Part shown: positions 19,754 through 32,814 of the stretch, one piece after another
Layout: each line of letters opens with the position of its first letter
Numbering within the stretch: position 1 is the first letter of the stretch
NCBI GenBank assembly: GCA_021287185.1
Contig: JAJTAZ010000030.1
Location: 57,607-121,606, forward strand
Origin: Burkholderiales bacterium
GTDB lineage: Bacteria > Pseudomonadota > Gammaproteobacteria > Burkholderiales > Burkholderiaceae
Direction: 5' to 3'
Length of the DNA stretch: 64,000 bases
Translations under genes and position numbers: made by a program
Notes under the pieces: generated by a model
Seen by the model: the letters and a program-made list of their open reading frames with translations, nothing else
Told to the model about the DNA's origin: nothing
The model's database searches: none

Positions 19754-19798
19754 TGGTCGGAACGGTGGGATTCGAACTCACTACCCCTTGCACCCCAT
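19754..19798 (-). repeat. attL: 45-bp duplicate of the tRNA-Pro 3' half
   Basis: This stretch matches 32735-32779 in 44 of 45 positions; the mismatch is T at 19782 against G at 32763. It holds the CCA end, acceptor 3' strand, T arm and part of the anticodon side of tRNA-Pro, but the 5' half is missing, so it is not a working tRNA. It marks the left boundary of the integrated element. Confidence 0.92.
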
Positions 19799-19934
19799 TT
19801 TTATTATTGAGTGTTTCACAAAATTCAAAAAAGTGTGCTATTTGAATTAAAATCAATATAAATCAAATAATTACATTCTCTTTTATTAAAAACGATGTAC
19901 AATGACATCCAACGAAATTCTATAAAATCTCGTT

Positions 19935-19964
19935 TTGCGGTGGGGGCAAAAGTGGGGGCAATTT
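19935..19964 (+). repeat. Integrase arm-type site, left copy
   Basis: Two tandem GTGGGGGCAA units form a 30-bp block that is identical in sequence and orientation to 32642-32671 at the other end of the island. Paired direct repeats just inside both att sites are what arm-type binding sites of a tyrosine integrase look like. The block sits 15 nt before the integrase start and could also affect its expression. Confidence 0.6.
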
Positions 19965-19979
19965 TAGGGTGTTTTTTAT

Positions 19980-21362
19980 ATGGCGAAAAACCAATATACC
20001 ACAGTGATGCAGTTAAACGCTTTGAGTGCCAGTGACCACGGGCGCAGAATCTCAATGGGTTTGAATATGCGCGGCGATGTGCGTGTGACCAAAGATGGTT
20101 TGGTGCGGGTGTATGTGGGGTATCGTTTTAAGGTGAATACTAAAATCCGTGAGGTGCGTTTGGGCGTTTACCCTGCTGATTCGCTCACTGATTTACGGGC
20201 AAAGCGCAAAGCAATTCAAGACCAATTAGACGTTGGCATTGACCCGATTGAGCAAACTAAAATCACCAAAGAAGATAAAGCTGCTAAGAATCTGGAAACT
20301 TTGGCAGAGTTAGAGCGACGCAAACAAGCAGCAATTGCAGAAAAAGAACGTATCAAATTAGAAATGGCGACCAAACAAGCGAGAATGACCGTTAGACGTT
20401 TTTTTGATACGTGGCAAAGTCTTGAGTTGAGACGGCGCAAAGATGGCGGTGCAGACGTTTTGCGGATGTTTACCAAGGATGTTTTCCCGCTGATTGGTGA
20501 AATGGCTTTGGAGGATGTCAAGCGTGCCCATATTCAAGAGATTGTTGACAATGTCACTATGCGAGGCGTGGTACGCATGAATAAAGCAGTTTTATCCGCC
20601 ATGCGACAAATGTTTAACTTTGCCATGGATAGAGAAATCATCGAAGCCGATCCGACAGCACGGATAAAAAAAGCATCACTGGGCAAAGACAATGAGCGTG
20701 ACCGCGTTTTGTCCTCACAAGAAATCATAGAACTATTCAAAAAAATGCCGATGAGTGGTTTAAGTGAAATGGCACAGCTCGCACTACTCGTGCAATTTGC
20801 CACCATGACACGCATATCCGAGGTGTTGGCGGCAAAATGGAGTGATGTCAATGTGCAAGAACGGGTTTGGCACATCCCCGAAACCAAAAACGGCAAAACC
20901 CATGACGTGTATTTGAGTGACTATGCTTTGAGTAAAATGGCACAATTGCGTGAGCATACAGGCATAACGCCGTATTTATTTCCATCCGCACGATTGGACA
21001 GCGGCGTGTGTAGCAAAACCATCACCAAGCAAGTGGCAGACCGTCAGCGTGGTGAAAATAGCCCGATGAGCAACCGCACCAAGCAAACAGACTCATTGAT
21101 GCTTGCAGGTGGGCAATGGCGACCGCATGATTTGCGCCGAACAGGAGCAACGATTGCCGTGGAATTGGGCATATCGCCCGAAGCGGTGGAGCGGTGTTTG
21201 AACCATACCGAGCAATCCAAAATCAAACGCATTTACCAACGCGCCAGCTATGCAAGTGAGAAAAAACGGGCGTGGCAAATGCTTGGGGATAAATTGGCGC
21301 GATTGGAGCAAGAAGCCTTGACAAGTGAAACCAGCAAAGTGATACCATTGCGCAGAGCATAA
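19980..21362 (+). CDS. P4-type tyrosine recombinase (island integrase)
   Basis: The integrase catalyses insertion and excision at the tRNA-Pro site. The N-terminal DUF4102-type arm-binding domain (about residues 1-95, EVRLGVYPADSLTDLRAKR) precedes a SAM-like core-binding region and the C-terminal catalytic domain. The catalytic residues are visible: Arg in TRISEVLAAKWSDV, His and Arg in RPHDLRRTGAT, a second His in CLNHTEQSKIK and the nucleophilic Tyr in RIYQRASY. The 460-residue length is normal, so it is probably intact. The Fic gene follows after 16 nt. Confidence 0.95.
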   Translation: MAKNQYTTVMQLNALSASDHGRRISMGLNMRGDVRVTKDGLVRVYVGYRFKVNTKIREVRLGVYPADSLTDLRAKRKAIQDQLDVGIDPIEQTKITKEDKAAKNLETLAELERRKQAAIAEKERIKLEMATKQARMTVRRFFDTWQSLELRRRKDGGADVLRMFTKDVFPLIGEMALEDVKRAHIQEIVDNVTMRGVVRMNKAVLSAMRQMFNFAMDREIIEADPTARIKKASLGKDNERDRVLSSQEIIELFKKMPMSGLSEMAQLALLVQFATMTRISEVLAAKWSDVNVQERVWHIPETKNGKTHDVYLSDYALSKMAQLREHTGITPYLFPSARLDSGVCSKTITKQVADRQRGENSPMSNRTKQTDSLMLAGGQWRPHDLRRTGATIAVELGISPEAVERCLNHTEQSKIKRIYQRASYASEKKRAWQMLGDKLARLEQEALTSETSKVIPLRRA

Positions 21363-21378
21363 TTTACCTTACGACCCC

Positions 21379-22458
21379 ATGACAACACATCATTTACCAA
21401 CATTGCCGAATTTGGGTGATATTGAAACCAAAGTCATTCTAAAAAAAGTAGCCCTTGCCCATAAAGCATTGGCTGAATTAAAGGGTGTGGCGGCGTCTAT
21501 GCCCAATCAAAGCATTTTAATTAACACACTGTCATTACAAGAAGCCAAAGACAGTTCGGCAATTGAAAACATCATCACTACGCACGATGATTTGTATCGT
21601 AGCGATAGCGCACAACGTCATTTTGTGACGATAGCCGCTAAAGAAGTACACAACTACGCCGAAGCATTGCGTGCAGGTTTTGAGCGTATCCGTCAAACAG
21701 GCTTGTTGACCAATAATGACATTTTAGACATACAGGCAGGCATCGAGCAAAATCAAGCGGGTTATCGAAAACAGTCAGGCACTGCGCTGAAAAATGACCA
21801 AACAGGCGAAGTGGTGTATCTACCTCCTCAACACCCCGATGAAATCGTTGCATTGATGAACAATTTAGAGCAGTTCATCAATCAGCCTGAATTATGTGAC
21901 TGGGATGTATTGGTCAAAATGGCAGTGATACACCACCAATTTGAAAGCATCCACCCCTTTTATGACGGCAACGGGCGCACAGGGCGGGTCATCAACATTT
22001 TGTATTTGGTACAGCAAGGTTTACTTGATACGCCGATATTGTACCTATCGCGTTATATCAATCAAAACAAAGCGGATTACTATCGACTGCTGCAAACCAC
22101 GCGAGACACCAAAGACTGGACAGAATGGTTGATGTATATGCTTGATGCCGTTGAGCAAACCGCAGTGCAAACTACCGAATTGATTCGGGCGATTAAAGCC
22201 TTGATGCAACAATACAAACACCGCTTGCGAGACGAAAAGCCAAAAATTTACAGCCAAGACCTCATCAATAATATTTTTCGTCATCCCTATACCAAGATTG
22301 ATTTTGTTGCCGATGAACTGAAAGTGACCCGTCAAACAGCAAGCAAGTATTTGGATGAGTTGGTGACTACTAAAATTTTGAGCAAACACCGATTGGGCAA
22401 AGAGAATTATTACCTCAACGATGGTTTATTTGAACTGCTTTTCAATGTGGGACGTTAA
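21379..22458 (+). CDS. Fic-family protein (putative AMP transferase) with C-terminal HTH
   Basis: Fic proteins usually transfer AMP from ATP to target proteins. The active-site motif HPFYDGNGRTGR fits HPFx[DE]GNGRxxR exactly, so the catalytic histidine is kept. The N-terminal segment SSAIEN fits the inhibitory-helix consensus [ST]xxxE[GN], which suggests self-inhibition (class II). The C-terminal part (VADELKVTRQTASKYLDELV) looks like a winged helix-turn-helix, a common partner domain in Fic proteins. It follows the integrase by 16 nt, probably on the same transcript. Its target is unknown; a role in defence or element stability is inference. Confidence 0.9.
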   Translation: MTTHHLPTLPNLGDIETKVILKKVALAHKALAELKGVAASMPNQSILINTLSLQEAKDSSAIENIITTHDDLYRSDSAQRHFVTIAAKEVHNYAEALRAGFERIRQTGLLTNNDILDIQAGIEQNQAGYRKQSGTALKNDQTGEVVYLPPQHPDEIVALMNNLEQFINQPELCDWDVLVKMAVIHHQFESIHPFYDGNGRTGRVINILYLVQQGLLDTPILYLSRYINQNKADYYRLLQTTRDTKDWTEWLMYMLDAVEQTAVQTTELIRAIKALMQQYKHRLRDEKPKIYSQDLINNIFRHPYTKIDFVADELKVTRQTASKYLDELVTTKILSKHRLGKENYYLNDGLFELLFNVGR

Positions 22459-22774
22459 CATGGCGGTCATAGCGAACGTGTCAACAAAATGTTTTTAATT
22501 TAACATGAGTCCTTTTTGATGTTAACAAAATTGTATTTTGTTAACACGTATTTTATTGTATGTTAGAAATAGTATTCACAAGGCAACTATTCGAAAAAAT
22601 CGAATAGTTCAAATTTGAAACAACACCCCACAAGAAACCCTTGTGCGTTCAAAGAAAATTAACCTACCCACGCCCGCAAAATAAAAAAGAAATAAGCCTT
22701 CATCATGCTTATTCATATCCGCTAAAATATGGGCTATCTAATACGTCTTTGCACATTAAACAACAAAGGGCACT
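22459..22774. promoter_or_regulatory. Palindrome-rich control region between fic and the R-M gene
   Basis: This 316-nt AT-rich spacer holds two strong inverted repeats. One spans 22520-22546, with 11-bp arms (TGTTAACAAAA) around a 5-nt centre. The other spans 22585-22609, with 10-bp arms (AACTATTCGA). Neither is followed by a T run, so they look like operators rather than terminators. Related GTTAACA and GTCAACAAAAT words occur near 22454 and 22491. The region probably carries the restriction-modification promoter and binding sites for a regulator, perhaps the Fic protein's own HTH domain. Confidence 0.5.
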
Positions 22775-25700
22775 ATGAGCGCGTTACAAGACCTACTGAG
22801 CCAATACCGTGAATTATCCAAAGAGCAGCGTGGCAAAGGCACGTTGTTTGAGTTGCTGATAAAAGATTTTTTGCAAAATGACCCTACGTTTGCACCGCAG
22901 TTTAGTGAGGTGTGGACATTTGCCGAATGGGCAAAATTGGAGGATAAACCTCAAAATGATGATGGCATAGACTTGGTAGCCAAGCGTGTTGATGAAGAGG
23001 GATTTTGCGCCATTCAGTGTAAATTCTATGCCGAAGATTATCGGATGCAAAAGGGTGATATTGATTCGTTTTTCACCGCATCGGGTAAGAAAGAATTTAC
23101 CAGTCGTTTGATTTTTGATACCACTCGCAGCGAGTGGAGCAAAAATGCGGAAGTAGCCTTAGAGGGGCAATCCAAGCCCGTACAACGCATCGGTTTGGTT
23201 GATTTAGAAAATAGCGCAATTGACTGGAGTGCATACACGCCCAATAAACCTGTGCAACTCAAAAGCAAAAAATCACTGAGACCTCACCAAGTTGCCGCAT
23301 TAAAGGCGGTGGCTGATGGTTTAGAACACGCTGACCGTGGCAAACTGATTATGGCGTGTGGCACGGGCAAAACATTTACCGCGCTAAAAATGGCTGAGAA
23401 AATGGCGGGCGTGGGCAAGCGTGTCTTGTTTTTAGTGCCGTCATTGTCCCTCATGTCTCAAACCATCACTGAATGGACAGCCGAGACCGAAACGCCATTA
23501 CATTCATTTGCCGTGTGTTCGGATGTACAGGTGGGCAAACGCAAAGAGTCCGATGATTTAGCCGACATTACCATTCACGACTTGGCATATCCTGCCACCA
23601 CCGATGCGCAAAAGTTAGTGACAAAATGCACCTCGCATGATGATGCCATGACCGTGATATTTTCCACCTATCAATCCATACAGGTGATTGCAGATGCACA
23701 AAAACTGGGTTTACCTGAATTTGATTTAATCATCTGTGACGAAGCCCACCGCACCACGGGGGCAACCTTAGCGGGTGCGGATGAATCCAATTTTGTCAAA
23801 ATCCATGACAATGGCTTTATCAAAGGCACAAAACGCGTGTATATGACTGCCACGCCCCGTATTTTCTCGGATACGGTCAAGAGCAAAGCCAATGAAGTCG
23901 ATGCCACGCTGGCTTCTATGGACAATTCTGAGTTATACGGTGAAACCCTGTTTGAACTCAATTTTTCATACGCGGTGCGAAATGGCTTATTGACCGATTA
24001 CAAAGTGATTGTGTTGGCAATGGATGAGTCCATCGTCAGTGAATCCATGCAAAAGCGATTTACCGATATGGACAATGAATTGATTTTGGATGACATGACC
24101 AAAATTATTGGTTGCTATCGGGCATTGAATAAATTGGATGTCAAAGAGGATGTGGTAGCAGACCCCACGCCCATGAAACGCGCCGTGGCGTTTTGTCGTG
24201 ATATTAAATCCTCAAAACGTATCAAAGAAGATTTTAGCAATGTGGTCAATGACTACCTCACCCACCAAGCGATTGATAATACCCAAGGACTAATTCAATG
24301 TGAAACTGAGCACGTGGACGGCACATACAATGCCACAGCCCGTAATGCACGCCTATCATGGTTAAAAGCCGACACACCTGATAACACCTGCCGTATATTG
24401 AGCAATGCCCGTTGTTTATCCGAGGGTGTGGATGTACCTGCATTGGATGCGATTTTATTTTTGCACCCGCGTAAATCTCAAATTGATGTGGTGCAATCGG
24501 TGGGGCGCGTCATGCGCCGTGCAGAAGGTAAAAATATGGGTTATGTGATATTGCCCATTGGTGTACCTGCGGGTGTGCCTGCTGAGGAAGCCCTCAATGA
24601 CAACGAAAAATACAAAGTCGTGTGGCAGATACTCAATGCACTGCGGGCGCATGATGACCGCATGGATGCCACAATCAACAAAATTGATATGGGCGTGGAC
24701 ATCAGCGGACAAATTGAAATTGTTGCCGTGGGCAATATCCTACCCGAACAACAAACCAAAGCCGAAAGCGCGGGCATTGGTCAAGGCGGTGGCGACAATG
24801 GTGACAATGGGGACGAATTTGAAACAGAGGGCGGCAAAAAACCCACCCAAACCAGTTTTGATTTTGATGAATTTCAGAAAGCCATATTGGCACGCATAGT
24901 TAAAAAATGCGGCACACGCGAGTATTGGGGCGATTGGGCAAATGGCATTGCACGCATAGCACAGACGCACATCACACGCATCACCGCTGCATTAGCCGAC
25001 CACAGCAGCCCTGCTTATCAGTCATTCAGTGCGTTTTTGGACGAATTGCGTGATGATTTGAACGAATCCATCACCGAGACCGAAGCGGTGGAAATGTTGG
25101 CACAGCACATCATCACCAAACCGATTTTTGATGCCTTGTTTGAGGGTTATAGTTTTACCGCTCATAATCCTGTCTCAAAAGCCATGCAAGGCGTATTAGA
25201 AACCTTACAAGGGCAAAATCTTGAAAAAGAACAAGAAGAGTTACAAGACTTCTATGACCGCGTGAAACGCCAAATAGGCGACATCAAAACCGCCGATGCC
25301 AAGCAAAAAATCATCTTGGATTTATACGACAAATTCTTTAAAAACGCCTTTCCCCGCATGACCGAACGCTTAGGGATTGTTTACACACCTGTGCAAGTGG
25401 TGGATTTCATTATTCACAGTATCAATGACGTATTGCAAAGCGAATTTAACAAAACCTTGGGGGATAAAGACGTACACATCATCGACCCATTCACAGGCAC
25501 AGGCACATTCATCACACGACTATTGCAAAGCGGTTTAATCAGCCGTGAGCAACTCGCGTATAAATACCAAAACGAAATCCACGCCAATGAAATTGTATTG
25601 TTGGCGTATTACATAGCCGCGATTAACATCGAATCGGTGTATCACGACCTGATGAACGCCAAAGACGGTGAATATCAGCCGTTCAACGGGATATGTTTGA

Positions 25701-27106
25701 CCGATACATTCCAACTCTACGAAAAAGACGACTTGGTGAGCAATATGCTGGAAGCCAACAGCAGCCGTCGCAAACGGCAAAAGAAACTCAATATCAAAGT
25801 GATTATGGGTAATCCTCCGTATAGTGCTGGGCAAGACAGTGCCAATAGCGATAACGCAAACATTGACTACCCTTGTTTGGACCAAAGAATTGCAGATAGT
25901 TATCTAACAGCTTCTCAAACCAAGGGCGGGAAGCGTTCATCATACGACTCATATATACGCGCAATTCGTTGGGCAAGTGACCGTTTAGCGGGTGAGGATG
26001 GAAATGGCACGGGGGTAATTGGTTTTGTCAGCAATGCTGGATTTATAGATTCAGCCTCAGCCGATGGACTGCGCAAATGCTTGGCAGAAGAGTTCGCCAG
26101 TATCTATGTGTTTCATTTGCGGGGTAATGCACGCACCTCAGGTGAATTACGCCGTCAAGAAAAGGACAATGTTTTTGGGCAAGGCACACGCACCCCCATC
26201 GCCATTAGCATCTTGGTACGTAACCCACAAGCCACCGAGCACGGGCGCATTGTCTTGCACGACATAGGCGACTATCTCACCCGTGAGGAAAAATTAGCCA
26301 AAATCGCCGCGTATCAAAGTATCAACGGCATCACAGCGGTCAATGGCTGGCTACCGATTAACCCCGACAAACACGGCGATTGGGTCAATCAGCGTGATGA
26401 TAGTTTTGGGGAGTTTATCAGCCTTGGTGATAAAAAAGATAAAAGCAGTGTGACGGTGTTTAGCCTATTTTCTAACGGGGTTGTTAGTAGCCGTGATGAG
26501 TGGGTATTTAACTATTCGGGTGTAAAAATGCGTGATTATTTGCCACGAATGATTGATTTTTATAACGCGGAAGTGAACAGATATGAGCAGCATTGTGCTG
26601 GATTAGACCCAAAAGAATTTCCAGAGGTTAAAACATTTGTCAAAAAGGATGTAACTAAGATTAGTTGGGGTGGGGGTAATTGGCAAGCAAGTTTTAAGCG
26701 ATTCGAGAAGCCAAGTTTTGAAAGAGAAAGGATTAGGCAATCGTTGTATAGACCGTTTACAAAAATTTGGCATTATGGCTCAAAAACCTTTAACCATAGT
26801 TTCTATTCTATGCCCAAGATTTTCCCCAATGCAATAGCAGAAAATCGGGTGATTAGTGTTACAGGGCGTGGTGCGACTAAGGAGTTTAGTGCTTTGATGG
26901 CGGATACTATACCCGATTTAGAGATGATTTCTAAAGGACAGTGTTTTCCACTGAGTACCTATGAAAGCGAGAATATAGCAACCGAACCGAACCGAACCGA
27001 ACCGAACCGAACCGAACCGAACCGAACCGAACCGAACCGAACCGAACCGAACCGAACCGAACCGAACCGAACCGAACCGAAATTATACCTCAAACGAGCA
27101 GCATAA
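22775..27106 (+). CDS. Type ISP-like restriction-modification enzyme, truncated form at current repeat number
   Basis: This is a single polypeptide with all R-M activities. An Mrr-like nuclease lies at the N-terminus (GIDLVAK at 64-70, QCK at 81-83). A superfamily 2 helicase follows (Walker A ACGTGKT at 194-200, DEAH at 322-325, MTAT at 357-360, VGRVMRR near 577). An N6-adenine methyltransferase comes next (DPFTGTG at 904-910, NPPY at 1013-1016), then the start of a C-terminal target-recognition region. This is the LlaGI/LlaBIII-type order. From about residue 1402 a 20-copy ACCGA tract encodes a TEPNR repeat and the frame stops 9 codons later (stop at 27104-27106). The missing C-terminal part is encoded downstream, so the enzyme is probably in an altered or OFF state. 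See the phase-variation finding. Confidence 0.92.
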   Translation: MSALQDLLSQYRELSKEQRGKGTLFELLIKDFLQNDPTFAPQFSEVWTFAEWAKLEDKPQNDDGIDLVAKRVDEEGFCAIQCKFYAEDYRMQKGDIDSFFTASGKKEFTSRLIFDTTRSEWSKNAEVALEGQSKPVQRIGLVDLENSAIDWSAYTPNKPVQLKSKKSLRPHQVAALKAVADGLEHADRGKLIMACGTGKTFTALKMAEKMAGVGKRVLFLVPSLSLMSQTITEWTAETETPLHSFAVCSDVQVGKRKESDDLADITIHDLAYPATTDAQKLVTKCTSHDDAMTVIFSTYQSIQVIADAQKLGLPEFDLIICDEAHRTTGATLAGADESNFVKIHDNGFIKGTKRVYMTATPRIFSDTVKSKANEVDATLASMDNSELYGETLFELNFSYAVRNGLLTDYKVIVLAMDESIVSESMQKRFTDMDNELILDDMTKIIGCYRALNKLDVKEDVVADPTPMKRAVAFCRDIKSSKRIKEDFSNVVNDYLTHQAIDNTQGLIQCETEHVDGTYNATARNARLSWLKADTPDNTCRILSNARCLSEGVDVPALDAILFLHPRKSQIDVVQSVGRVMRRAEGKNMGYVILPIGVPAGVPAEEALNDNEKYKVVWQILNALRAHDDRMDATINKIDMGVDISGQIEIVAVGNILPEQQTKAESAGIGQGGGDNGDNGDEFETEGGKKPTQTSFDFDEFQKAILARIVKKCGTREYWGDWANGIARIAQTHITRITAALADHSSPAYQSFSAFLDELRDDLNESITETEAVEMLAQHIITKPIFDALFEGYSFTAHNPVSKAMQGVLETLQGQNLEKEQEELQDFYDRVKRQIGDIKTADAKQKIILDLYDKFFKNAFPRMTERLGIVYTPVQVVDFIIHSINDVLQSEFNKTLGDKDVHIIDPFTGTGTFITRLLQSGLISREQLAYKYQNEIHANEIVLLAYYIAAINIESVYHDLMNAKDGEYQPFNGICLTDTFQLYEKDDLVSNMLEANSSRRKRQKKLNIKVIMGNPPYSAGQDSANSDNANIDYPCLDQRIADSYLTASQTKGGKRSSYDSYIRAIRWASDRLAGEDGNGTGVIGFVSNAGFIDSASADGLRKCLAEEFASIYVFHLRGNARTSGELRRQEKDNVFGQGTRTPIAISILVRNPQATEHGRIVLHDIGDYLTREEKLAKIAAYQSINGITAVNGWLPINPDKHGDWVNQRDDSFGEFISLGDKKDKSSVTVFSLFSNGVVSSRDEWVFNYSGVKMRDYLPRMIDFYNAEVNRYEQHCAGLDPKEFPEVKTFVKKDVTKISWGGGNWQASFKRFEKPSFERERIRQSLYRPFTKIWHYGSKTFNHSFYSMPKIFPNAIAENRVISVTGRGATKEFSALMADTIPDLEMISKGQCFPLSTYESENIATEPNRTEPNRTEPNRTEPNRTEPNRTEPNRTEPKLYLKRAA
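26981..27080 (+). repeat. Pentanucleotide tract, 20 perfect copies of ACCGA
   Basis: Exactly 100 bp of uninterrupted ACCGA lie inside the 3' part of the R-M gene. Because 5 is not a multiple of 3, gain or loss of one unit changes the downstream frame. All three frames through the tract are free of stops and read the same five residues (N, R, T, E, P in rotation). Tracts of this length are typical contingency loci that mutate by slipped-strand pairing. The same unit is, from memory, the one found in the phase-variable modD gene of Neisseria meningitidis. Confidence 0.97.
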
Positions 27107-27239
27107 CCAATCGGGTGATTTGCCTGAGTGTGACGGGCAACAAGGGCTTCTCAGTCCTGATGACAGACCAGATTCCCGACCTGCACTTGATAGGGGATGC
27201 TCAGTGCTTTCCTCTGTTTCTGTTCGAGGAGGAGGCAAT

Positions 27240-27953
27240 ATGAGCCAAGCGAATTTATTTGCCGATGATGTGGCAATGAACCCTCCCGAGCAAAGCGGTG
27301 AAAAGACCTTGGTACGACGTGATGGCATTACTGATGCTGGGCTGGCACATTTTGCTAAAGCCTACCCGACTGAAACCATCACCAAAGAAGATGTGTTTTA
27401 TTACATCTATGGATTGCTGCACTCAGAGGACTACAAAAAACGCTATGCCGATAACCTCACCAAAGAATTGCCGCGTATCCCTTGCGTGAAAAAATCCACT
27501 GACTTTTGGGCATTTAGCCGTTCGGGGCGTGTACTGGCAGATTTGCACGTGGATTATGAAAGCGTGGCAATGTACCCCGTGACCTTTGAGGGTGGCGAAT
27601 TGCTGATGAGCGCATTATCTGATGCGGATTACCGTGTGGAGCAGATGAAGTTTGGTAAAAAAGGTAAAGTGACCGATAAAACCACGGTGATTTATAACCA
27701 CAAAATCACGATGACGGGCATCCCATTAGAAGCCTATGACTACGTGGTCAATGGCAAGCCTGCATTGGAATGGGTGATGGAACGGCAAGCCGTGACCACA
27801 CATAAAGACAGCGGCATTGTCAATGATGCAAATGACTGGGCAATCGAGACTATGGGTAATGCCAAATACCCATTGGAGTTGTTTCAGCGAGTAATTACCG
27901 TGTCGATTGAAACCATGAAAATTGTGCGGGCGTTACCACGGTTGGATATTTGA
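27240..27953 (+). CDS. C-terminal recognition part of the Type ISP-like enzyme, separate frame
   Basis: The protein of about 237 residues starts MSQANLFADDVAMN. The middle, DAGLAHFAKAYPTETITKED then VFYYIYGLLHSEDYKKRYAD, and the FWAFSRSGRVLADLHVDYE segment resemble the C-terminal end of Type ISP and related helicase-methyltransferase enzymes, normally part of one long chain. The ATG overlaps a TGA in another frame (ATGA), and the GAG-rich stretch before it is a strong ribosome binding site, so it could be made separately. The same frame is open upstream through the ACCGA tract, so one more repeat unit would fuse it to the large protein. A label as a stand-alone protein is uncertain. Confidence 0.8.
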   Translation: MSQANLFADDVAMNPPEQSGEKTLVRRDGITDAGLAHFAKAYPTETITKEDVFYYIYGLLHSEDYKKRYADNLTKELPRIPCVKKSTDFWAFSRSGRVLADLHVDYESVAMYPVTFEGGELLMSALSDADYRVEQMKFGKKGKVTDKTTVIYNHKITMTGIPLEAYDYVVNGKPALEWVMERQAVTTHKDSGIVNDANDWAIETMGNAKYPLELFQRVITVSIETMKIVRALPRLDI

Positions 27954-27974
27954 GATTTTTAAAAGGTGTGCGTG

Positions 27975-28211
27975 ATGTCAGTGATTCAATTCCCAAAATT
28001 TAACCCCGCCGCCGCAAAGTTGTGGGCTAAGTTATCTGCTGATGACAAAATCGCTTTGCTTGAAAATGTGTGGTGTATGCAATGCCGTGATGAAACTACA
28101 ATCACCCACATCAATGGCAAGGCAGAGCGTGGCAGTTTAATTCTCAATGGACAGTGTATCAGGTGCGGCAGCCCTGTGGGGCGTTTGATTGAAAAAGAGT
28201 GGTTTGAGTAA
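27975..28211 (+). CDS. Small zinc-ribbon-like protein of unknown function
   Basis: The 78-residue protein has two CxxC pairs, CMQC near residue 34 and CIRC near residue 60, spaced like a small zinc ribbon. Its N-terminus (MSVIQFPKFNPAAAKLWAKL) is mildly hydrophobic with no signal peptide. ATG 27975 is preceded by AAAAGG at 8 nt; the in-frame GTG at 27966 is a poorer choice. It follows the R-M C-terminal gene by 21 nt and leads a run of three unknown genes. No family is recognised with confidence. Confidence 0.7.
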   Translation: MSVIQFPKFNPAAAKLWAKLSADDKIALLENVWCMQCRDETTITHINGKAERGSLILNGQCIRCGSPVGRLIEKEWFE

Positions 28212-28242
28212 GGTGCAAAAATAAACTTTATCAGGAGTTGTT

Positions 28243-29439
28243 ATGAATAAAAATTATAGTCCGCAGGATTTTTTTGCTTGTGTACCCAAGGTGTTTTTAA
28301 AGCAATATTTTGACAGTCACAGCGTGATGCGAGATGTGGATTTTGAAAGCGCGGATGATGATTTAACTGAAAAAATCCTTGCCAATTGGGCAGTATTGGA
28401 TGAAGTGCAACGCGATGAAATGGAAACGCATTTTCAAGAAATCCACGCCCTATCCAACGAAAAAGGTATGAACGCGCTGATAGATGAAGCCTTGTTTCAC
28501 GGTGAAGCCCTCAATGATACATTTGATAAAAATGAATTGGTGGGGTTTGAAGCGCGGGCTTTTTGGTCATTTTTAAATCGTGAGTCACTGTGGAAAAATG
28601 CCTTGTCATTGAATTATGCGGATAACTTAACTCATTGGAAAAAGCGCAGTGAGTTGGGCGATTACCCTGCCAAAGTAGATGAGCCAAGTGTTCAGCGTTT
28701 TACGATGGCACTGGGCGAGTATTTCGGCAGTGATTTGTATATGGGAAAAAACTGCCAAGTAGAATGTTTGAAGCGTGTGGTGGATGGCAAAAAATATGAT
28801 TACTTTTTTGCTTATCCTGAGGATTATGCGCGGGTGTATCGTAACTGGGAAAGCGGCAAAACCAAAAATCATGTGCAACGTAAAGTATTGGAAGTGATTT
28901 TTGTTTATTGCCGTGAGCAGCAGTCATTAGATGTGTGGTGTCAGTTTAAATCTGAGGTGGTCAAGGCATTGCAAAAAATCTTTGCCAGCGAAATATTGGG
29001 CATTGATTTACCGAAGCCCGTTAGAGTTAAAAAAGAATATGAATTGGATGCGTTCAAGCAATCCATGCCTAATTTAATTTATGCCCCACAAACAGGTATT
29101 GAGCACATCCGCGTGAATAAGTTGCGTATTATGATGTCGCACAGCAAGGATAAAATCACTTTAGAAGCCAATCCCCATGACGACCCGCAGGCGGTATATA
29201 AACTCTTTGAAAAATTAAAAAATAGTGTCAGTGGTGATGTGATGAATATCACGCAAGTGGGGCTTGTCGCACAATTTGTACCTGCTGAAAATGGCAAGCC
29301 ACAAACGCGCAAATTTTCAATGTCATACCCTGATAGTTGTAGTTTGAAGCATACAGGGCAAGATGCCATATTACGGCAAATGCTCATAGATTCGGGCATA
29401 CAGCCTAAGCCAACAATTAAGAACACTGATAAGCAATGA
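28243..29439 (+). CDS. Hypothetical island protein, 398 aa
   Basis: The protein is soluble, acidic at the N-terminus (FESADDDLTEKIL) and mixed helical. It contains an aromatic cluster (GKKYDYFFAYPEDYARVYRNWESG) and a C-terminal part with KLRIMMSHSKDKITLEANP. No nuclease, ATPase or helix-turn-helix motif was found by eye. AGGAG lies 6-7 nt before the ATG. The gene sits between the zinc-ribbon-like gene and the 277-residue gene with short spacers, so the three are probably cotranscribed. The role is unknown; its position beside the R-M system makes a defence or control role possible, but that is inference. Confidence 0.75.
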   Translation: MNKNYSPQDFFACVPKVFLKQYFDSHSVMRDVDFESADDDLTEKILANWAVLDEVQRDEMETHFQEIHALSNEKGMNALIDEALFHGEALNDTFDKNELVGFEARAFWSFLNRESLWKNALSLNYADNLTHWKKRSELGDYPAKVDEPSVQRFTMALGEYFGSDLYMGKNCQVECLKRVVDGKKYDYFFAYPEDYARVYRNWESGKTKNHVQRKVLEVIFVYCREQQSLDVWCQFKSEVVKALQKIFASEILGIDLPKPVRVKKEYELDAFKQSMPNLIYAPQTGIEHIRVNKLRIMMSHSKDKITLEANPHDDPQAVYKLFEKLKNSVSGDVMNITQVGLVAQFVPAENGKPQTRKFSMSYPDSCSLKHTGQDAILRQMLIDSGIQPKPTIKNTDKQ

Positions 29440-29449
29440 GTGGGCGTGT

Positions 29450-30283
29450 ATGAGTATCACCAGTGTGATTGATTATTTAAGTTTGTTGTTACGGCAATTG
29501 GCTGCCGTAGATGACGATAAATTTTTAATCAGCCATGAGGAGCGTGTTGAAGTCCCTGATGATGTTTGGGCAACGATGGCACAACTCAAAATTGTGCAAC
29601 AGGTTCAATACGCAAAATCCATTATCTGCGATGGGTGTGAGGAAAATTGTGTAAGACCCGTTGTCATTTACCAAGCCAATGCCAAAAGCCCAGCACGGGC
29701 TTTTATCGTTTGTGATGTCCGTGAGGATGGGGGGCGCGTCAATGTTGAATTTGAGCGATTAAATCAATGGCTGATGTCAAAGCGACAATTGGCAGAGATG
29801 GTGCGGGAATTATTAGGAAATTCTACTCAGTCAGTGGCTAAAGATGTGGCATTGTGGCGTTTGGGCATGGTGGATGGAGGCAAACATAAATCACAGGTGT
29901 CTTTGAAATTTGACAGTGATGTGATGGTGTTGGCAGGTGGACATAAAGTACCATTGATGGAGTTATTATCTTTTGAAAAAGATGCGTTGAAAATCGACCT
30001 CAAAAAAATTAAAAAAATGGTCAATGAATCTACGGGATTTTCTGATGATGTTGAAAGTACTAAGGCAAGAAACGCACGGATGTTAAAACGTAAAAATGAA
30101 TTGAAATCCCAAAAAGTTAGAAATTTCAATCAACAAATTGCCAATGAAGAAAATTTATCATTGGCGACGGTCAAAAATGCTATTTCAAGCGCAGAAAAAG
30201 AACAAAATGCGCAATCGACCCCACAATCAAGCAATAAATTCAAAAATATATTTCCAACTCAAAGTAGCCAATCAAAAAATTAA
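29450..30283 (+). CDS. Hypothetical island protein with CDGCEENC motif, 277 aa
   Basis: The N-terminal half carries a cysteine cluster (IICDGCEENCVRPV, about residues 59-72) that could bind a metal. The C-terminal third is strongly basic (ARMLKRKNELKSQKVRNFNQ) and ends in a Ser/Gln/Asn-rich tail. The segment ENLSLATVKNAISSAEK could be a recognition helix. Similar proteins, as recalled, occur on other proteobacterial islands without an assigned function. It starts 10 nt after the 398-residue gene, so the two are probably translated together. Confidence 0.75.
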   Translation: MSITSVIDYLSLLLRQLAAVDDDKFLISHEERVEVPDDVWATMAQLKIVQQVQYAKSIICDGCEENCVRPVVIYQANAKSPARAFIVCDVREDGGRVNVEFERLNQWLMSKRQLAEMVRELLGNSTQSVAKDVALWRLGMVDGGKHKSQVSLKFDSDVMVLAGGHKVPLMELLSFEKDALKIDLKKIKKMVNESTGFSDDVESTKARNARMLKRKNELKSQKVRNFNQQIANEENLSLATVKNAISSAEKEQNAQSTPQSSNKFKNIFPTQSSQSKN

Positions 30284-30357
30284 TCCCACTGTTTATAAGG
30301 CTTATCGCGTGGTCAAGTGGCTACATTGCAGGCTACCCCAGTAGCCAGTGCCCAATG

Positions 30358-30379
30358 ACGTTGTTTTAATCAACAACGT
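30358..30379. promoter_or_regulatory. Inverted repeat upstream of the AlpA-like gene
   Basis: Perfect 8-bp arms (ACGTTGTT and AACAACGT) flank a 6-nt centre, 17 nt before the regulator's ATG. Upstream, GTGGCTAC and GTAGCC form another partial inverted pair near 30317-30346. This is a candidate autoregulatory operator; no T run follows, so termination is unlikely. Confidence 0.45.
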
Positions 30380-30395
30380 ACAGAAAGGTACTTTT

Positions 30396-30659
30396 ATGAC
30401 TACTAAAATTCAACGCTTGCCAATGCTTCAATCTGAAGTGGGCTTATCACGCTCATCGGTGTATGGGCATATCGCTAAAGGCTTGTTACCCAAGCCCATT
30501 CAAATTTCATCCCGTGTAGTCGCTTGGCTGAGTCATGAGACAGACGCAATTATCGCTGCCCGCATTGCGGGTAAATCGGATGATGAGATTCGTGAATTGG
30601 TCATTGAACTGATGAGCCAACGTTCAAAAGTTCAAACACAAATGAATGGGGGTGCGTAA
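30396..30659 (+). CDS. AlpA-family DNA-binding regulator
   Basis: The 87-residue protein has the short MerR/excisionase-type helix-turn-helix of AlpA: LPMLQSEVGLSRSSVYGHIAKGLLPKPI, then VAWLSHETDAIIAARI. AlpA proteins switch on excision or integrase genes of cryptic prophages and islands. ATG 30396 is chosen because AAAGG lies 8-9 nt upstream. Its stop overlaps the next start (TAATG). It is probably the island's excision regulator. Confidence 0.88.
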   Translation: MTTKIQRLPMLQSEVGLSRSSVYGHIAKGLLPKPIQISSRVVAWLSHETDAIIAARIAGKSDDEIRELVIELMSQRSKVQTQMNGGA

Positions 30660-31054
30660 TGAATCAGCACCTTTTGACCCACGCCCCTATCATTCCAAAT
30701 GAAAGCCCCTCAATCGCGCCAACGAATGAGGGGGTAGAAAACTGTATTCCTGAGCAAGCAATACAGCCACATCATATCGCAAATAACGCCACGATTAAAG
30801 ACATGAGTAATAACTCTACAAAGGCACAGCGTGCGCGATTATTGGCATATCTGCGATTGCACGGTTCGATTACCACTGCCCACGCCCGTGAGCATTTAAA
30901 TATCTATGACCCACGGGTGCGCAAATGCGAATTGGTTAAACAAGGTTACAACATTGTAATGACTTGGGTCACGGCGGTTACTGCACAGGGTTATGTGCAT
31001 AAGGTGGGTTTGTACACCTTGATTGAGCCTGAAAATGTGGAGGAGCAATCATGA
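30659..31054 (+). CDS. Helix-turn-helix domain protein
   Basis: The 131-residue protein has a disordered N-terminal half. The C-terminal domain KAQRARLLAYLRLHGSITTAHAREHLNIYDPRVRKCELVKQ has the look of the HTH_39-type winged helix found in phage and island proteins. It starts in a TAATG overlap with the AlpA-like gene and ends in an ATGA overlap with the next small gene, so the set is one operon. Its DNA target is unknown. Confidence 0.75.
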   Translation: MNQHLLTHAPIIPNESPSIAPTNEGVENCIPEQAIQPHHIANNATIKDMSNNSTKAQRARLLAYLRLHGSITTAHAREHLNIYDPRVRKCELVKQGYNIVMTWVTAVTAQGYVHKVGLYTLIEPENVEEQS

Positions 31055-31206
31055 GTACGTCTAATTGGTTGTGCGAGTTGGAATGTTTGTGTATCCGCTA
31101 TTCTGAGTTGGGCGTGGTGCATGATTTGGGTGAGATGAGTGACATTGAAAAATGGGGCTTGTATCGGTTTTTGAAACGCTATGGAATCATTCATGGAACC
31201 GACTAA
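31051..31206 (+). CDS. Small coupled protein, 51 aa
   Basis: This short frame (MSTSNWLCELECLCIRYSEL to GIIHGTD) is supported by a GGAGG ribosome binding site 7 nt upstream and an ATGA overlap with the stop of the HTH gene. It overlaps the start of the next gene by 26 nt. Three cysteines and an acidic middle are the only visible traits. The function is unknown. Confidence 0.6.
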   Translation: MSTSNWLCELECLCIRYSELGVVHDLGEMSDIEKWGLYRFLKRYGIIHGTD

Positions 31207-31642
31207 GACACGGTACAAGAAAGGCAATCATGGGCGGGATGGTGGGCAGTTTGCCGCTATCCCACACAATGTGCTCAATAGTCATGCGTATTTGAGTTTG
31301 GGCGCGTATGCGGTCAAATTGCTCATTGATATGTTGGTGCAGTTTCGTGGCTCAAATAATGGCGATTTATGCGCATCATTCAGTGTGATGCAAAAGCGTG
31401 GTTGGAAGTCAAAAGAGACTTTGCACAATGCAAAAAAAGAGTTGATTGAAGCCTGTCTCATCGTTGAAACCCGTAAGGGTATGCGCCCAAATAAAGCGAG
31501 TTTGTACGCAGTGACGTGGCATCCATTGGATACCTGCGGCGGCAAGTTGGATATGTCACCGCAAGCATTTCCACGCGGCGGATACAAGCAATATCAGCCA
31601 ACCGCACCACCCGAAAACATTGTGAAAAAACGCGAGCCTTAG
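31181..31642 (+). CDS. Winged-helix-like island protein
   Basis: The 153-residue protein contains FAAIPHNVLNSHAYLSLGAYAVKLLIDMLVQF, then SFSVMQKRGWKSKETLHNAKKELIEACLI, a pattern like replication-initiator or regulator winged helices on small elements. The start may be ATG 31181 or ATG 31196. Its stop codon touches the first of four 17-bp palindromes, which makes it a candidate protein for binding them. That link is inference from position only. Confidence 0.65.
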   Translation: MESFMEPTKTRYKKGNHGRDGGQFAAIPHNVLNSHAYLSLGAYAVKLLIDMLVQFRGSNNGDLCASFSVMQKRGWKSKETLHNAKKELIEACLIVETRKGMRPNKASLYAVTWHPLDTCGGKLDMSPQAFPRGGYKQYQPTAPPENIVKKREP

Positions 31643-31775
31643 TACGGTAGCCGTACTCAAAGACTTATTTTAGGTACGGGATTCGTACCAATAGCATTAA
31701 AAGGTGAGGTTATTGGTACGGCAATCGTATCTATCAAGGCTGGTTTTCATGACCTGCTGGTACGGTAGCCGTACA
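31641..31775. repeat. Four copies of a 17-bp palindrome GTACGGnAnnCGTAC
   Basis: Imperfect palindromes of the form (G/A)GTACGGnAnnCGTA(C/T)n occur at 31641-31657, 31673-31689, 31715-31731 and 31759-31775, all in one intergenic region of 190 nt. The spacing is 32, 42 and 44 nt. The first and last share the core TACGGTAGCCGTAC. They could be iterons of a cryptic origin, a relaxase or partition site, or operators for a dimeric regulator. Confidence 0.8.
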
Positions 31776-31832
31776 CCTCTATAGAATTACCATATACACA
31801 GCGCAATGCGCGGATAAGTAAGGATAGTCAAG

Positions 31833-32510
31833 ATGAATAAACCCAAGAAACAAACTCAGGCAGAGAAAAACGCTCAAGCCAAACAAGAATTGGATAAGCG
31901 TAAAAATCGAGATTCTGCTTTTGTAAGCAGTGCAGCCATTGCCAACGCGGCAATTACTGAAACATTTGGCAAGGATTTATTTCCTGATGTGGATGTTTTG
32001 GCAATCACTGAGAATCTCAATAAAAGCGTGGAAATGGTACATGATGGTGACTTGAAAGAATTGGAGGCAATGTTAGTGGGTCAAGCCAAAGCACTACAAG
32101 TGATGTTTGCAAGTTTAGCAAGACGTGCCAGTGCTCAACAATATCTAAAATATTATTCAACGTACATGAATTTAGCACTCAAGACACAATCCCAAAGCCG
32201 CGCCACCATCCAAGCCATTGTAGAACTGAAATACCCGCGTCAAGTTGTGGTGACTCAGCAAGCAAATTTTAGTGCAGGACACCAACAGGTCAACAATGGT
32301 GCAACACAAAGAAATCTTGATAGCAATACACACGTGCCCACGCACGCGGGAAAAAATCAAAATGAACCAAACAAACTAATGGAATCACATCATGAAAACA
32401 TCATCGAAGCACAAACCAAACGGCTGGACACCCGAACGACGGGCACAGCAATCAACAGCAATACACCGCTGGAAACCGTGGCAAAAGTCCACAGGGGCAA
32501 AAACACCTGA
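31833..32510 (+). CDS. Conserved island/phage-type protein of unknown function, 225 aa
   Basis: The protein starts with a Lys/Gln-rich tail. Its central helical region (ITENLNKSVEMVHDGDLKELEAMLVGQAKALQVMFASLARRA) and the KTQSQSRATIQAIVELKYPRQ segment followed by AGHQQVNNG resemble a family often found on proteobacterial prophages and islands beside the next gene. No function is established. The ATG lies 57 nt after the last palindrome. The last 119 nt overlap the next gene in a different frame. Confidence 0.7.
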   Translation: MNKPKKQTQAEKNAQAKQELDKRKNRDSAFVSSAAIANAAITETFGKDLFPDVDVLAITENLNKSVEMVHDGDLKELEAMLVGQAKALQVMFASLARRASAQQYLKYYSTYMNLALKTQSQSRATIQAIVELKYPRQVVVTQQANFSAGHQQVNNGATQRNLDSNTHVPTHAGKNQNEPNKLMESHHENIIEAQTKRLDTRTTGTAINSNTPLETVAKVHRGKNT

Positions 32511-32622
32511 GGGGAAAAACATAGTGTCACAGAACGCTTTTAAGGGTGGCATGAAAGCGCAGTTAAAAGAATTTCGTCAAATTTTGCGCGAGCAGAAAGA
32601 GTTGTTGGAAAAATTAAGATAA
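32392..32622 (+). CDS. Small conserved island protein (GWTPERRAxQ family), 76 aa
   Basis: The start MKTSSKHKPNGWTPERRAQQ is followed by IHRWKPWQKSTGAKTPEGK. This recurs, from memory, in short proteins paired with the preceding gene on islands. It is basic and lacks membrane segments. It begins inside the 225-residue gene and overlaps it by 119 nt in another frame. It is the last gene before the right arm repeat and attR. Confidence 0.65.
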   Translation: MKTSSKHKPNGWTPERRAQQSTAIHRWKPWQKSTGAKTPEGKNIVSQNAFKGGMKAQLKEFRQILREQKELLEKLR

Positions 32623-32641
32623 ATACCTTTCAAAGGATTGC

Positions 32642-32671
32642 TTGCGGTGGGGGCAAAAGTGGGGGCAATTT
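32642..32671 (+). repeat. Integrase arm-type site, right copy
   Basis: This is identical over 30 bp to 19935-19964 and in the same orientation, again with two GTGGGGGCAA units. It lies 63 nt inside the attR core. Confidence 0.6.
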
Positions 32672-32694
32672 GCCAGTTTTTAAAAAGCAAGAAA

Positions 32695-32727
32695 AAAGGG
32701 TTTACAGTCAAAAACTGTAAACCCTTT
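32695..32727 (-). terminator. Terminator supplied by the island behind tRNA-Pro
   Basis: A 13-bp perfect stem (AAAGGGTTTACAG) with a TCAAAAA loop lies directly behind the tRNA 3' end on the minus strand. It resembles the hairpin at 19712-19746 but differs in several paired bases, so it came with the element and gives the rebuilt tRNA gene a new terminator. Confidence 0.75.
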
Positions 32728-32734
32728 ATTTTAC

Positions 32735-32814
<80 letters not shown>

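What the first reader, a model, noticed from the sequence alone, without database searches (positions are those of the whole stretch)
22775..27953. Three-state phase-variable switch in the recognition region of a Type ISP-like restriction-modification enzyme
Seen directly: 20 perfect ACCGA units (26981-27080) lie inside the long R-M gene. Its reading frame (coordinate mod 3 = 2) ends at 27106, nine codons after the tract. The mod-0 frame is open from the tract to 27953 and includes the whole C-terminal domain. The mod-1 frame runs from the tract to TGA 27241-27243, where it overlaps the ATG of that domain (ATGA). Arithmetic: 21 units give a fusion of about 1727 aa; 19 units give about 1487 aa coupled to the domain; 20 units give 1443 aa lacking it. 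Known: Type ISP enzymes use the C-terminus for DNA recognition, and phase-variable R-M genes usually carry the tract near the 5' end and toggle ON or OFF. A tract at the 3' end that selects among three C-termini is unusual. Inference: cells in a population would differ in restriction, methylation or both.
Basis: partly seen in the sequence, partly recalled or inferred. Interest (0 to 1): 0.94.

Follow-up and report, generated by a model that had tools for sequence, protein, structure and literature searches.

The report
Three-way repeat switch swaps DNA reader
A run of twenty identical five-letter DNA units sits inside a bacterial gene for a predicted DNA-cutting and DNA-marking defence enzyme, between two different copies of the part predicted to read the DNA target, so gaining or losing units would pick one of three enzyme endings and likely change which DNA the cell attacks; relatives in several bacterial groups show the same layout with different repeats.

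Summary
Observation confirmed: 20 perfect ACCGA units at 26981-27080; 19, 20 or 21 units give 1487, 1443 or 1727 aa. The gene has Type ISP domains; the tract splits its recognition domain before the 'guide' part.

Copy 1 precedes the tract; copy 2 follows it in a second frame and ends in ATGA at the start of the guide ORF; the guide is in the third frame. The module aligns with LlaGI's base-reading Loop VI; at LlaGI His1368, copy 1 has Glu and copy 2 His.

Relatives share the layout with other tracts: 18 repeat peptides imply units of 4, 5, 7, 8 or 10 nt, 14 of them seen with two modules. The copies differ at that residue in 68 of 70 proteins. Three Neisseriaceae loci have three copies, each frame giving another ending. 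Proteins identical over 1401-1441 aa occur in two frames.

So this is likely a slipped-strand, three-state specificity selector; precedent: the H. pylori Type IIG C-terminal switch. Slippage, specificity change and guide assembly in trans are inferred. New variant of a known kind.

The parts
22775..27106 (+). Type ISP restriction-modification gene as assembled (20 units): Mrr nuclease, SF2 helicase-like ATPase, coupler, N6 methyltransferase, first half of the recognition domain; 1443 aa
   Evidence: Pfam PF13156, PF04851, PF22240, PF02384, PF18135 model positions 2-169
26795..26962 (+). Recognition module, copy 1 (frame mod 2); ends NRVISVTGRGATKEFSALMADTIPDLEMISKGQCFPL plus a few residues
   Evidence: module HMM hit; aligns with LlaGI and LlaBIII TRD
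26921..26923 (+). Glu codon (GAG) of copy 1 in the column of LlaGI His1368 / LlaBIII Asn1360 (predicted +3 base reader)
26981..27080 (+). 20 perfect ACCGA units, predicted slipped-strand switch; encodes TEPNR repeats in every frame
27082..27243 (+). Recognition module, copy 2 (frame mod 1, read with 19 or 22 units) and its TGA stop
   Evidence: own-frame conservation among seven loci
27184..27186 (+). His codon (CAC) of copy 2 in the LlaGI His1368 column
27226..27235 (+). Shine-Dalgarno-like GAGGAGGAGG inside the copy 2 codons, just before the guide ATG
   Evidence: GGAGG before the guide ATG in 8 of 8 loci compared
27240..27243 (+). ATGA: stop of copy 2 overlapping the start of the guide ORF
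   Evidence: TAATG or ATGA in 8 of 8 loci compared
27240..27953 (+). End of the recognition core plus guide subdomain (frame mod 0), 237 aa from its ATG; fused to the enzyme with 21 or 18 units
   Evidence: PF18135 model positions 164-342; LlaGI chain 1227-1404; length
19754..32779 (.). 13-kb integrative element carrying the gene: 45-bp repeat with one mismatch at 19754-19798 and 32735-32779, the latter at the 3' end of tRNA-Pro(ggg); integrase 19980-21362

Best explanation
This is a Type ISP-like restriction-modification gene in which a 20-unit ACCGA tract sits between two copies of a ~45-residue module that aligns with the base-reading Loop VI of LlaGI, so that slippage would select one of three C-termini and likely switch the enzyme's target sequence. 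Shown by the sequence: with 21 (or 18) units the gene would encode one chain with copy 1 (reader Glu) and the guide, copy 2 being read out of frame as a stop-free linker. With 19 (or 22) units it gains copy 2 (reader His) and stops at ATGA, where the guide ORF starts behind a Shine-Dalgarno-like sequence. With 20 units it stops soon after the tract with copy 1 only. Inferred: units are gained and lost by slipped-strand mispairing; copy 2 displaces copy 1 in the recognition core, as proposed for the extra C-terminal domain of H. pylori JHP1272; the guide made as a separate chain docks to complete the fold; the base at target position +3 changes (His reads G in LlaGI); the 20-unit state is probably weak or OFF. 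Methylation and restriction should switch together because one recognition domain serves both.
For: Same three-frame layout in six Neisseriaceae loci with long upstream ORFs and other tracts (L131, L132, L102, L133, L134, L135; 10 of 83 genomes of that family have any match). Three of them have three copies: the frames after the tract give copy 2, copy 3 or guide fusion, readers N/H/Q, E/H/Q, N/H/E. 18 repeat peptides, each encodable by exactly one nucleotide unit of the same length (4, 5, 7, 8 or 10 nt; random peptides at most 0.34%); unselected scan of 260 linkers: best peptide period 4, 5, 7, 8 or 10 in 81 of the 82 with a repeat. Reader differs between copy 1 and copy 2 in 68 of 70 proteins. 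Open frames: the frame two bases on from copy 2 is stop-free in 7 of 7 loci against 10 of 81 single-copy modules of GC below 0.56 (13 of all 92); the frame one base on, also needed in three-copy loci, in 3 of 3 against 1 of 81 (3 of 92) (Fisher 3e-6 and 4e-5, loci related). Unneeded frames hold 4-8 stops. Copy 2 differences fall on own-frame codon positions 1/2/3 as 147/83/414 over 21 pairs. GG-x-M before the guide in 23 of 25 fused repeat-type proteins, 1 of 145 canonical. Natural state pairs without mismatch: P0118/P0169, P0097/P0128, P0082/P0121; window against P0001, 95.9% identical upstream, copy 2 frame, about 7 units by peptide.
Against: No reads, methylome or activity data. Many database proteins come from metagenome assemblies, where long tracts can collapse, so single states there are unsafe. 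The host draft may miscount its own tract. AlphaFold2 of a copy 2-ending protein without guide gave low confidence for both copies (blocks about 38-57), a canonical protein with guide did better there (about 64-86): the two-chain form may fail unless the guide really docks. In-frame repeats do occur at this linker in single-copy genes: a 6-nt unit in L047 and a doubled 3-aa unit in P0224. No other locus with two copies showed in 249 genomes of the window's family or 369 of its class with the copy 2 query.
Confidence: 0.68

Rival explanations
1. Plain ON/OFF phase variation: only the fused state (21 or 18 units) is active because the guide must be covalently attached; copy 2 is a leftover duplication and both other frames are OFF.
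For: Canonical Type ISP enzymes are single chains. The recognition region was modelled better in the protein that has the guide. Two other Type ISP genes in the set have homopolymer tracts of 10 at the same linker without a second copy (L075 poly-G, L058 poly-C).
Against: Copy 2 is conserved in its own frame, its reader differs from copy 1 in 68 of 70 proteins, three-copy loci keep a third module in the remaining frame, and the guide keeps a Shine-Dalgarno-like sequence and start codon of its own.
Confidence: 0.18
2. Uncoupling switch: the states keep one specificity but differ in restriction, because the guide steers DNA to the ATPase; detached-guide states would methylate without cutting.
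For: The guide takes no part in target recognition but steers upstream DNA towards the ATPase (PMC4872093, passages). The guide is fused in one frame only.
Against: Does not explain why the duplicated piece is the base-reading region, nor why its reader residue differs between copies.
Confidence: 0.1
3. A decayed gene or an assembly error: the tract and split are damage to a Type ISP pseudogene.
For: The gene is split as assembled; the host genome is a draft; one Neisseriaceae locus (G349, L101/L175) is indeed a relic without its N-terminal part.
Against: Long upstream ORFs, the same layout with many different repeat units, conservation of copy 2 and stop-free linker frames.
Confidence: 0.02
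4. Neutral elongation of a flexible linker, with no regulatory meaning.
For: The linker between module and guide is predicted disordered in a canonical relative (residues 812-840 of P0017), so insertions may be tolerated; an in-frame 6-nt repeat lies there in L047.
Against: 81 of 82 repeat-bearing protein linkers have periods that imply a frame-shifting unit, and the frames needed for three products stay open.
Confidence: 0.02

Closest known systems
H. pylori Type IIG enzymes JHP1272 (Hpy99XIV) and HP1353-HP1354 (HpyAXVI); PMC3936762, passages seen
   Same: A frameshift at a repeat near the 3' end adds an extra C-terminal recognition piece resembling part of the regular recognition domain and changes the methylated motif (GGWTAA to GGWCNA; CRTTRA to CRTCNA).
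   Different: Type IIG; homopolymer; two outcomes at that tract. Here: Type ISP domains with helicase, multi-base units, three outcomes, the extra piece lies between tract and guide, and the guide is fused or separate according to frame.
LlaGI and LlaBIII, structurally solved Type ISP enzymes (PDB 5ffj, 4xqk; PMC4872093, abstract, passages and section 18 seen)
   Same: Same domain order; the module aligns with the stretch that holds Loop VI; copy 2 has His as LlaGI does.
   Different: One chain; no repeat tract reported in what I read.
NgoAV Type I HsdS homonucleotide switch (Adamczyk-Poplawska 2011; paper not held; known only through PMC5953494)
   Same: Tract-length change alters recognition.
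   Different: Separate Type I specificity subunit.
Campylobacter jejuni Cj0031 (PMC4889913, passages)
   Same: Fused R-M enzyme with a tract inside the gene that can split it into two reading frames.
   Different: Type IIG, poly-G, reported as ON/OFF.

Membership tests
Type ISP restriction-modification enzymes | Mrr-type nuclease domain, SF2 helicase-like ATPase, coupler, N6-adenine methyltransferase in this order | tested here: met
   PF13156, PF04851, PF22240, PF02384 above cut-off in order; query 4-1399 aligned to LlaBIII 15-1377, E = 0
Type ISP restriction-modification enzymes | C-terminal recognition domain in the same single polypeptide | tested here: inconclusive
   PF18135 positions 2-169 in the assembled ORF and 164-342 in the next ORF: not met as assembled; one chain with 21 or 18 units
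Type ISP restriction-modification enzymes | ATP-driven translocation and cleavage between head-to-head sites | not testable with these tools
   biochemical
Slipped-strand phase-variable genes | Long tandem tract in the ORF whose unit is not a multiple of 3 | tested here: met
   20 x 5 nt
Slipped-strand phase-variable genes | Natural alleles with other tract lengths and frames | tested here: met
   P0001, 95.9% identical upstream, about 7 units by peptide, copy 2 frame; zero-mismatch pairs in relatives; assembly collapse not excluded for single cases
Slipped-strand phase-variable genes | Reversible switching within one clone | not testable with these tools
   no reads or colonies
H. pylori-type C-terminal specificity switch (Type IIG) | Frame change adds a second, different recognition piece | tested here: met
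   copy 2 with a different reader residue
H. pylori-type C-terminal specificity switch (Type IIG) | Type IIG architecture (no helicase; recalled) | tested here: not met
   helicase and Type ISP coupler domains present; so it works like one but is not a member
H. pylori-type C-terminal specificity switch (Type IIG) | Measured change of methylated motif | not testable with these tools
   no methylome

The most novel reading that the evidence does not exclude
A frame-encoded module selector: one repeat tract in a single-chain restriction enzyme uses the reading frames productively, each frame delivering a different base-reading loop or the guide fusion, with overlapping out-of-frame copies serving as linkers; a recurrent family with many different repeat units, with named members from Neisseria, Acinetobacter, Rhodanobacter, Pseudoxanthomonas, Cardiobacterium and Methylococcales besides the window's host.
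Probability: 0.6. Interest if true: 0.88.

Novelty: new variant of a known kind. Interest (0 to 1): 0.82.

Why it matters
Phase-variable restriction and methylation are mostly described as ON/OFF or as recombination between specificity genes. Here one tandem repeat would shift a single enzyme among alternative target readers in one slippage step, giving mixed populations with different methylomes and phage barriers. Because the swapped residue maps onto a base contact seen in a crystal structure, it offers a natural test of the Type ISP recognition code at target position +3. Annotation reads such genes as truncated or frameshifted, so the family is easily overlooked; the Neisseria phasome section that I read (PMC5953494 section 14) names modA, modB, modD and a Type I S subunit, not this gene.

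Tried and rejected
AlphaFold2 of P0011 (copy 1, tract, copy 2, no guide) was too uncertain in the recognition domain to say which copy docks; with the same 44 sequences the canonical P0017 modelled better (one result collected four times), with a disordered linker where the tract sits in repeat-type genes. That is one protein each, so only a hint. No fold search was run.

Searches for more DNA examples mostly failed. Viral contigs: P0058 gave five single-copy genes, P0128 the same five contigs, P0051 one of them plus L168, which was not scored, P0031 and P0152 nothing. 369 genomes of the class and 249 of the family gave no second two-copy locus; this rests on matches to the window's copy 2 at E up to 0.001, so divergent copies could be missed. 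Plasmid and phage searches were read only as their best listed rows and not scored for copies or tracts. Among the 78 genome-contig loci I saw no second module copy and no period-5 tract; some of these loci end before the module.

Correction found on checking: a 6-nt repeat (CGACAC, 26 nt) in L047 lies in the linker of a single-copy gene, and P0224 has a doubled 3-aa unit there; so in-frame repeats at this place exist, but not among the 18 units that I tested. Three of the 18 units were seen in DNA (ACCGA, CGAA, AACGC); the rest are inferred from peptides. 14 of the 18 occur in proteins with two modules, the other four (ANSEQRT, NSEQQRATAS, AAQRS, ANSQQPT) in proteins with one.

Neighbours: none of the window's neighbouring genes that I tested has a full relative beside the Neisseriaceae genes, only a distant integrase match in L174, so I take the gene as stand-alone. 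Further copies in the host genome: only the two known matches.

First counting of reader residues by a text pattern mis-parsed several rows; the alignment-column count replaces it. The 25 fused and the 113 repeat-type proteins were picked with text patterns written after looking at the listing, so these are counts of a chosen set; the scan of 260 linkers used no such patterns. G349 (L101) was first taken as an example; it is a relic and is left out of the 7-of-7 count. The synonymous shuffles used the codon usage of the window gene for all loci. The GC cut of 0.56 in the control was chosen after the fact; figures for all 92 are given too. Internal control: copy 1 of the same eight loci (window, relic included) is stop-free two bases on in 1 of 8 (L135) and one base on in 0 of 8. 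Protein searches listed only the best 120 of 761, 551 and 686 hits, 261 distinct proteins in all.

Literature: nine searches; passages of PMC4872093, PMC3936762, PMC12707154, PMC5953494, PMC3874165, PMC10073500 and PMC4889913 were opened, none in full. In these I saw no Type ISP gene with a repeat switch; subscription journals are mostly not held, so this is not proof of absence.
Full report
Observation. The window holds one tandem array, 20 perfect ACCGA units at 26981-27080, inside a long ORF 22775-27106. Because 5 is not a multiple of 3, the tract encodes the same TEPNR peptide in all frames and each unit shifts the downstream frame.

What the gene is. Pfam finds an Mrr-like nuclease, ResIII/DEAD helicase, Type ISP coupler, N6 methyltransferase and the first half (model 2-169) of the Type ISP specificity domain; the ORF after the tract holds the second half (164-342). 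The best solved relatives are LlaBIII and LlaGI. The downstream ORF matches LlaGI chain residues 1227-1404, that is, the end of the recognition core and the guide subdomain as described in PMC4872093 (abstract, passages and section 18 seen).

The missed duplication. A profile of the 56-residue module before the linker, built from 75 relatives, hits the window twice: 26795-26962 in the frame of the gene and 27082-27225 in another frame, followed by a stop that overlaps the guide ATG as ATGA; the guide lies in the third frame. So copy 1, copy 2 and guide occupy three frames.

What the module does. In the alignment to LlaGI, His1368, Gly1372 and Gln1373 fall in this module if chain numbers are shifted by 164; that shift is my inference from all three residues fitting. 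The paper reports that these residues read position +3 and places Loop VI at 1365-1374; Asn1360 of LlaBIII is the equivalent of His1368. In a joint alignment LlaGI His1368 and LlaBIII Asn1360 share one column. Window copy 1 has Glu there, copy 2 His. Among 70 proteins with two in-frame copies the residue differs in 68; exceptions are P0094 and P0204. The 70 are not independent: they fall into 15 clusters at 70% N-terminal identity, two of which hold a protein with identical readers.

The family. Three protein searches listed 261 distinct proteins. By module count, 69 have two modules and no guide, 166 one module plus guide, 24 one module and no guide, 1 two modules plus guide, and 1 no module. 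With text patterns written by hand, 113 of 262 (window included) look repeat-type: 69 end after a second in-frame module, 27 are fused to the guide, 17 end early. A scan without such patterns finds a repeat (two or more full copies, at least 6 aa) in 82 of 260 linkers, with best peptide period 4 in 38, 5 in 33, 7 in 7, 10 in 2, 8 in 1 and 3 in 1. Eighteen repeat peptides, the window's included, were tested; each can be encoded by exactly one nucleotide unit of the same length (4, 5, 7, 8 or 10 nt), random peptides in at most 0.34% of cases. Fourteen of the 18 occur in proteins with two modules. Named members include Neisseria dentiae, Neisseria sp. HMSC077D05, Acinetobacter tjernbergiae, Rhodanobacter panaciterrae, Pseudoxanthomonas broegbernensis, Cardiobacterium hominis (partial) and a Methylococcales MAG; an N. 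lactamica record is partial and ends before any tract.

DNA of relatives. In the order sample (399 genomes) two genomes besides the window, G292 and G349, show two adjacent copies. In their family (83 genomes, 10 with any match), two-copy loci are G292, G443 and G468, three-copy loci G438, G451 and G455, and G349 is a relic without the N-terminal part. Tracts are CGAA x 9, 22, 30, 33 or 68, or ACGCA x 11. In three-copy loci the three frames give copy 2, copy 3 behind an out-of-frame copy 2, or guide fusion behind both out-of-frame copies. The fused Acinetobacter protein P0128 seems to pass two out-of-frame copies as well; I read this by eye from its linker.

Selection on the layout. In two-copy loci the guide frame lies two bases on from copy 2. 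Under synonymous shuffling it should hold about 3 stops; it holds none in the window (P = 0.008) or in L131, L132, L102 and the relic L101 (P = 0.013-0.023), while the unneeded frame holds 6-8. In three-copy loci both other frames are needed through copy 2 (two bases on for copy 3, one base on for the guide) and both are stop-free (P = 0.0002-0.021); copy 3 is stop-free only in the guide frame (P = 0.02-0.11) with 4 stops in the unneeded one. Control: of 81 canonical modules with GC below 0.56, 10 are stop-free two bases on and 1 is one base on (13 and 3 of all 92); copy 1 of the same eight loci is stop-free in 1 of 8 and 0 of 8. Fisher P = 3e-6 for 7 of 7 and 4e-5 for 3 of 3, to be read with care: the loci are related and the two counts overlap. 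Copy 2 differences over 21 pairs of seven loci fall on own-frame codon positions 1/2/3 as 147/83/414; amino acids differ at 0-13 of 40 in the own frame and 4-28 of 39 in the frame two bases on. So copy 2 looks like a selected peptide whose out-of-frame reading only needs to stay open. All eight loci compared have GGAGG just before the guide and a stop overlapping its start. Fused repeat-type proteins keep GG-x-M before the guide in 23 of 25 (the other two have RGEQLM), canonical ones in 1 of 145.

Evidence of switching. Three protein pairs share 1401, 1441 and 1438 residues without mismatch and then diverge by frame at the tract (P0118/P0169, P0097/P0128, P0082/P0121); P0137/P0155 differ once in 1443 residues before diverging. 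The window gene has a relative, P0001, 95.9% identical upstream, in the copy 2 frame with about 7 units by its peptide. Metagenome assembly may collapse long tracts, so single states are less safe than the pattern.

Mechanism. I favour a three-state specificity selector. Shown: layout, three encoded products, duplication, reader difference, conservation of copy 2 and open frames. Inferred: slippage, displacement of copy 1 by copy 2, docking of a separate guide chain, change of base at +3, low activity of the early-stop state. H. pylori JHP1272/HP1353-54 show that frame-dependent addition of a partial recognition domain changes the motif. The modelling contrast warns that the recognition region may not fold without the guide; the retained Shine-Dalgarno-like sequence and start of the guide are the counter-argument. 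The main rival is ON/OFF control with activity only in the fused state. Homopolymer runs of 10 at the same linker in two single-copy genes (L075, L058) could be such a simpler form.

Setting. The gene sits in a 13-kb integrative element between a 45-bp repeat with one mismatch (19754-19798, 32735-32779) at tRNA-Pro, with integrase, Fic, AlpA-like and unknown genes. The neighbours that I tested are not shared with the Neisseriaceae loci apart from one distant integrase match.

Verdict. Observation confirmed, interpretation supported and extended; a new variant of a known kind, found here as a recurrent family.

Noticed in passing
window 19754-32779: 13-kb integrative element at tRNA-Pro(ggg): integrase, Fic protein, Type ISP gene, AlpA-like regulator, HTH_39 protein and several unknown ORFs.
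   Followed up: partly
L075:1603-1612: A single-copy Type ISP gene of an uncultured betaproteobacterium has ten G at the linker before the guide, with module and guide in different frames: possibly a simpler ON/OFF form of the same switch site.
   Followed up: partly
L058:10331-10340: A deltaproteobacterial Type ISP gene has ten C at the same linker, again with module and guide in different frames.
   Followed up: partly
L047:10202-10227: A single-copy Type ISP gene has an in-frame 6-nt repeat (CGACAC) at the same linker, which would change linker length but not frame.
   Followed up: partly
window 28243-29439 and 29450-30283: Two ORFs after the R-M gene without Pfam or NCBIfam match at E 0.001; the first matches a PHROG of unknown function (phrog_37634).
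   Followed up: partly
L101, L175 (G349): A relic Type ISP locus: only the last part (an open frame of 364 codons) remains, yet both module copies and the guide are still recognisable.
   Followed up: yes
L038:5739-5798, L053:5753-5799, L063:5753-5799: Repeats of period 4 or 8 (AGCC, TGATTGGC) about 200 bases upstream of the matched Type ISP genes of Pseudomonas: possible promoter-region tracts.
   Followed up: no
P0207: The one listed protein in which a second module is in frame with the guide and no tract is seen: perhaps a switch locked by loss of its repeat.
   Followed up: no
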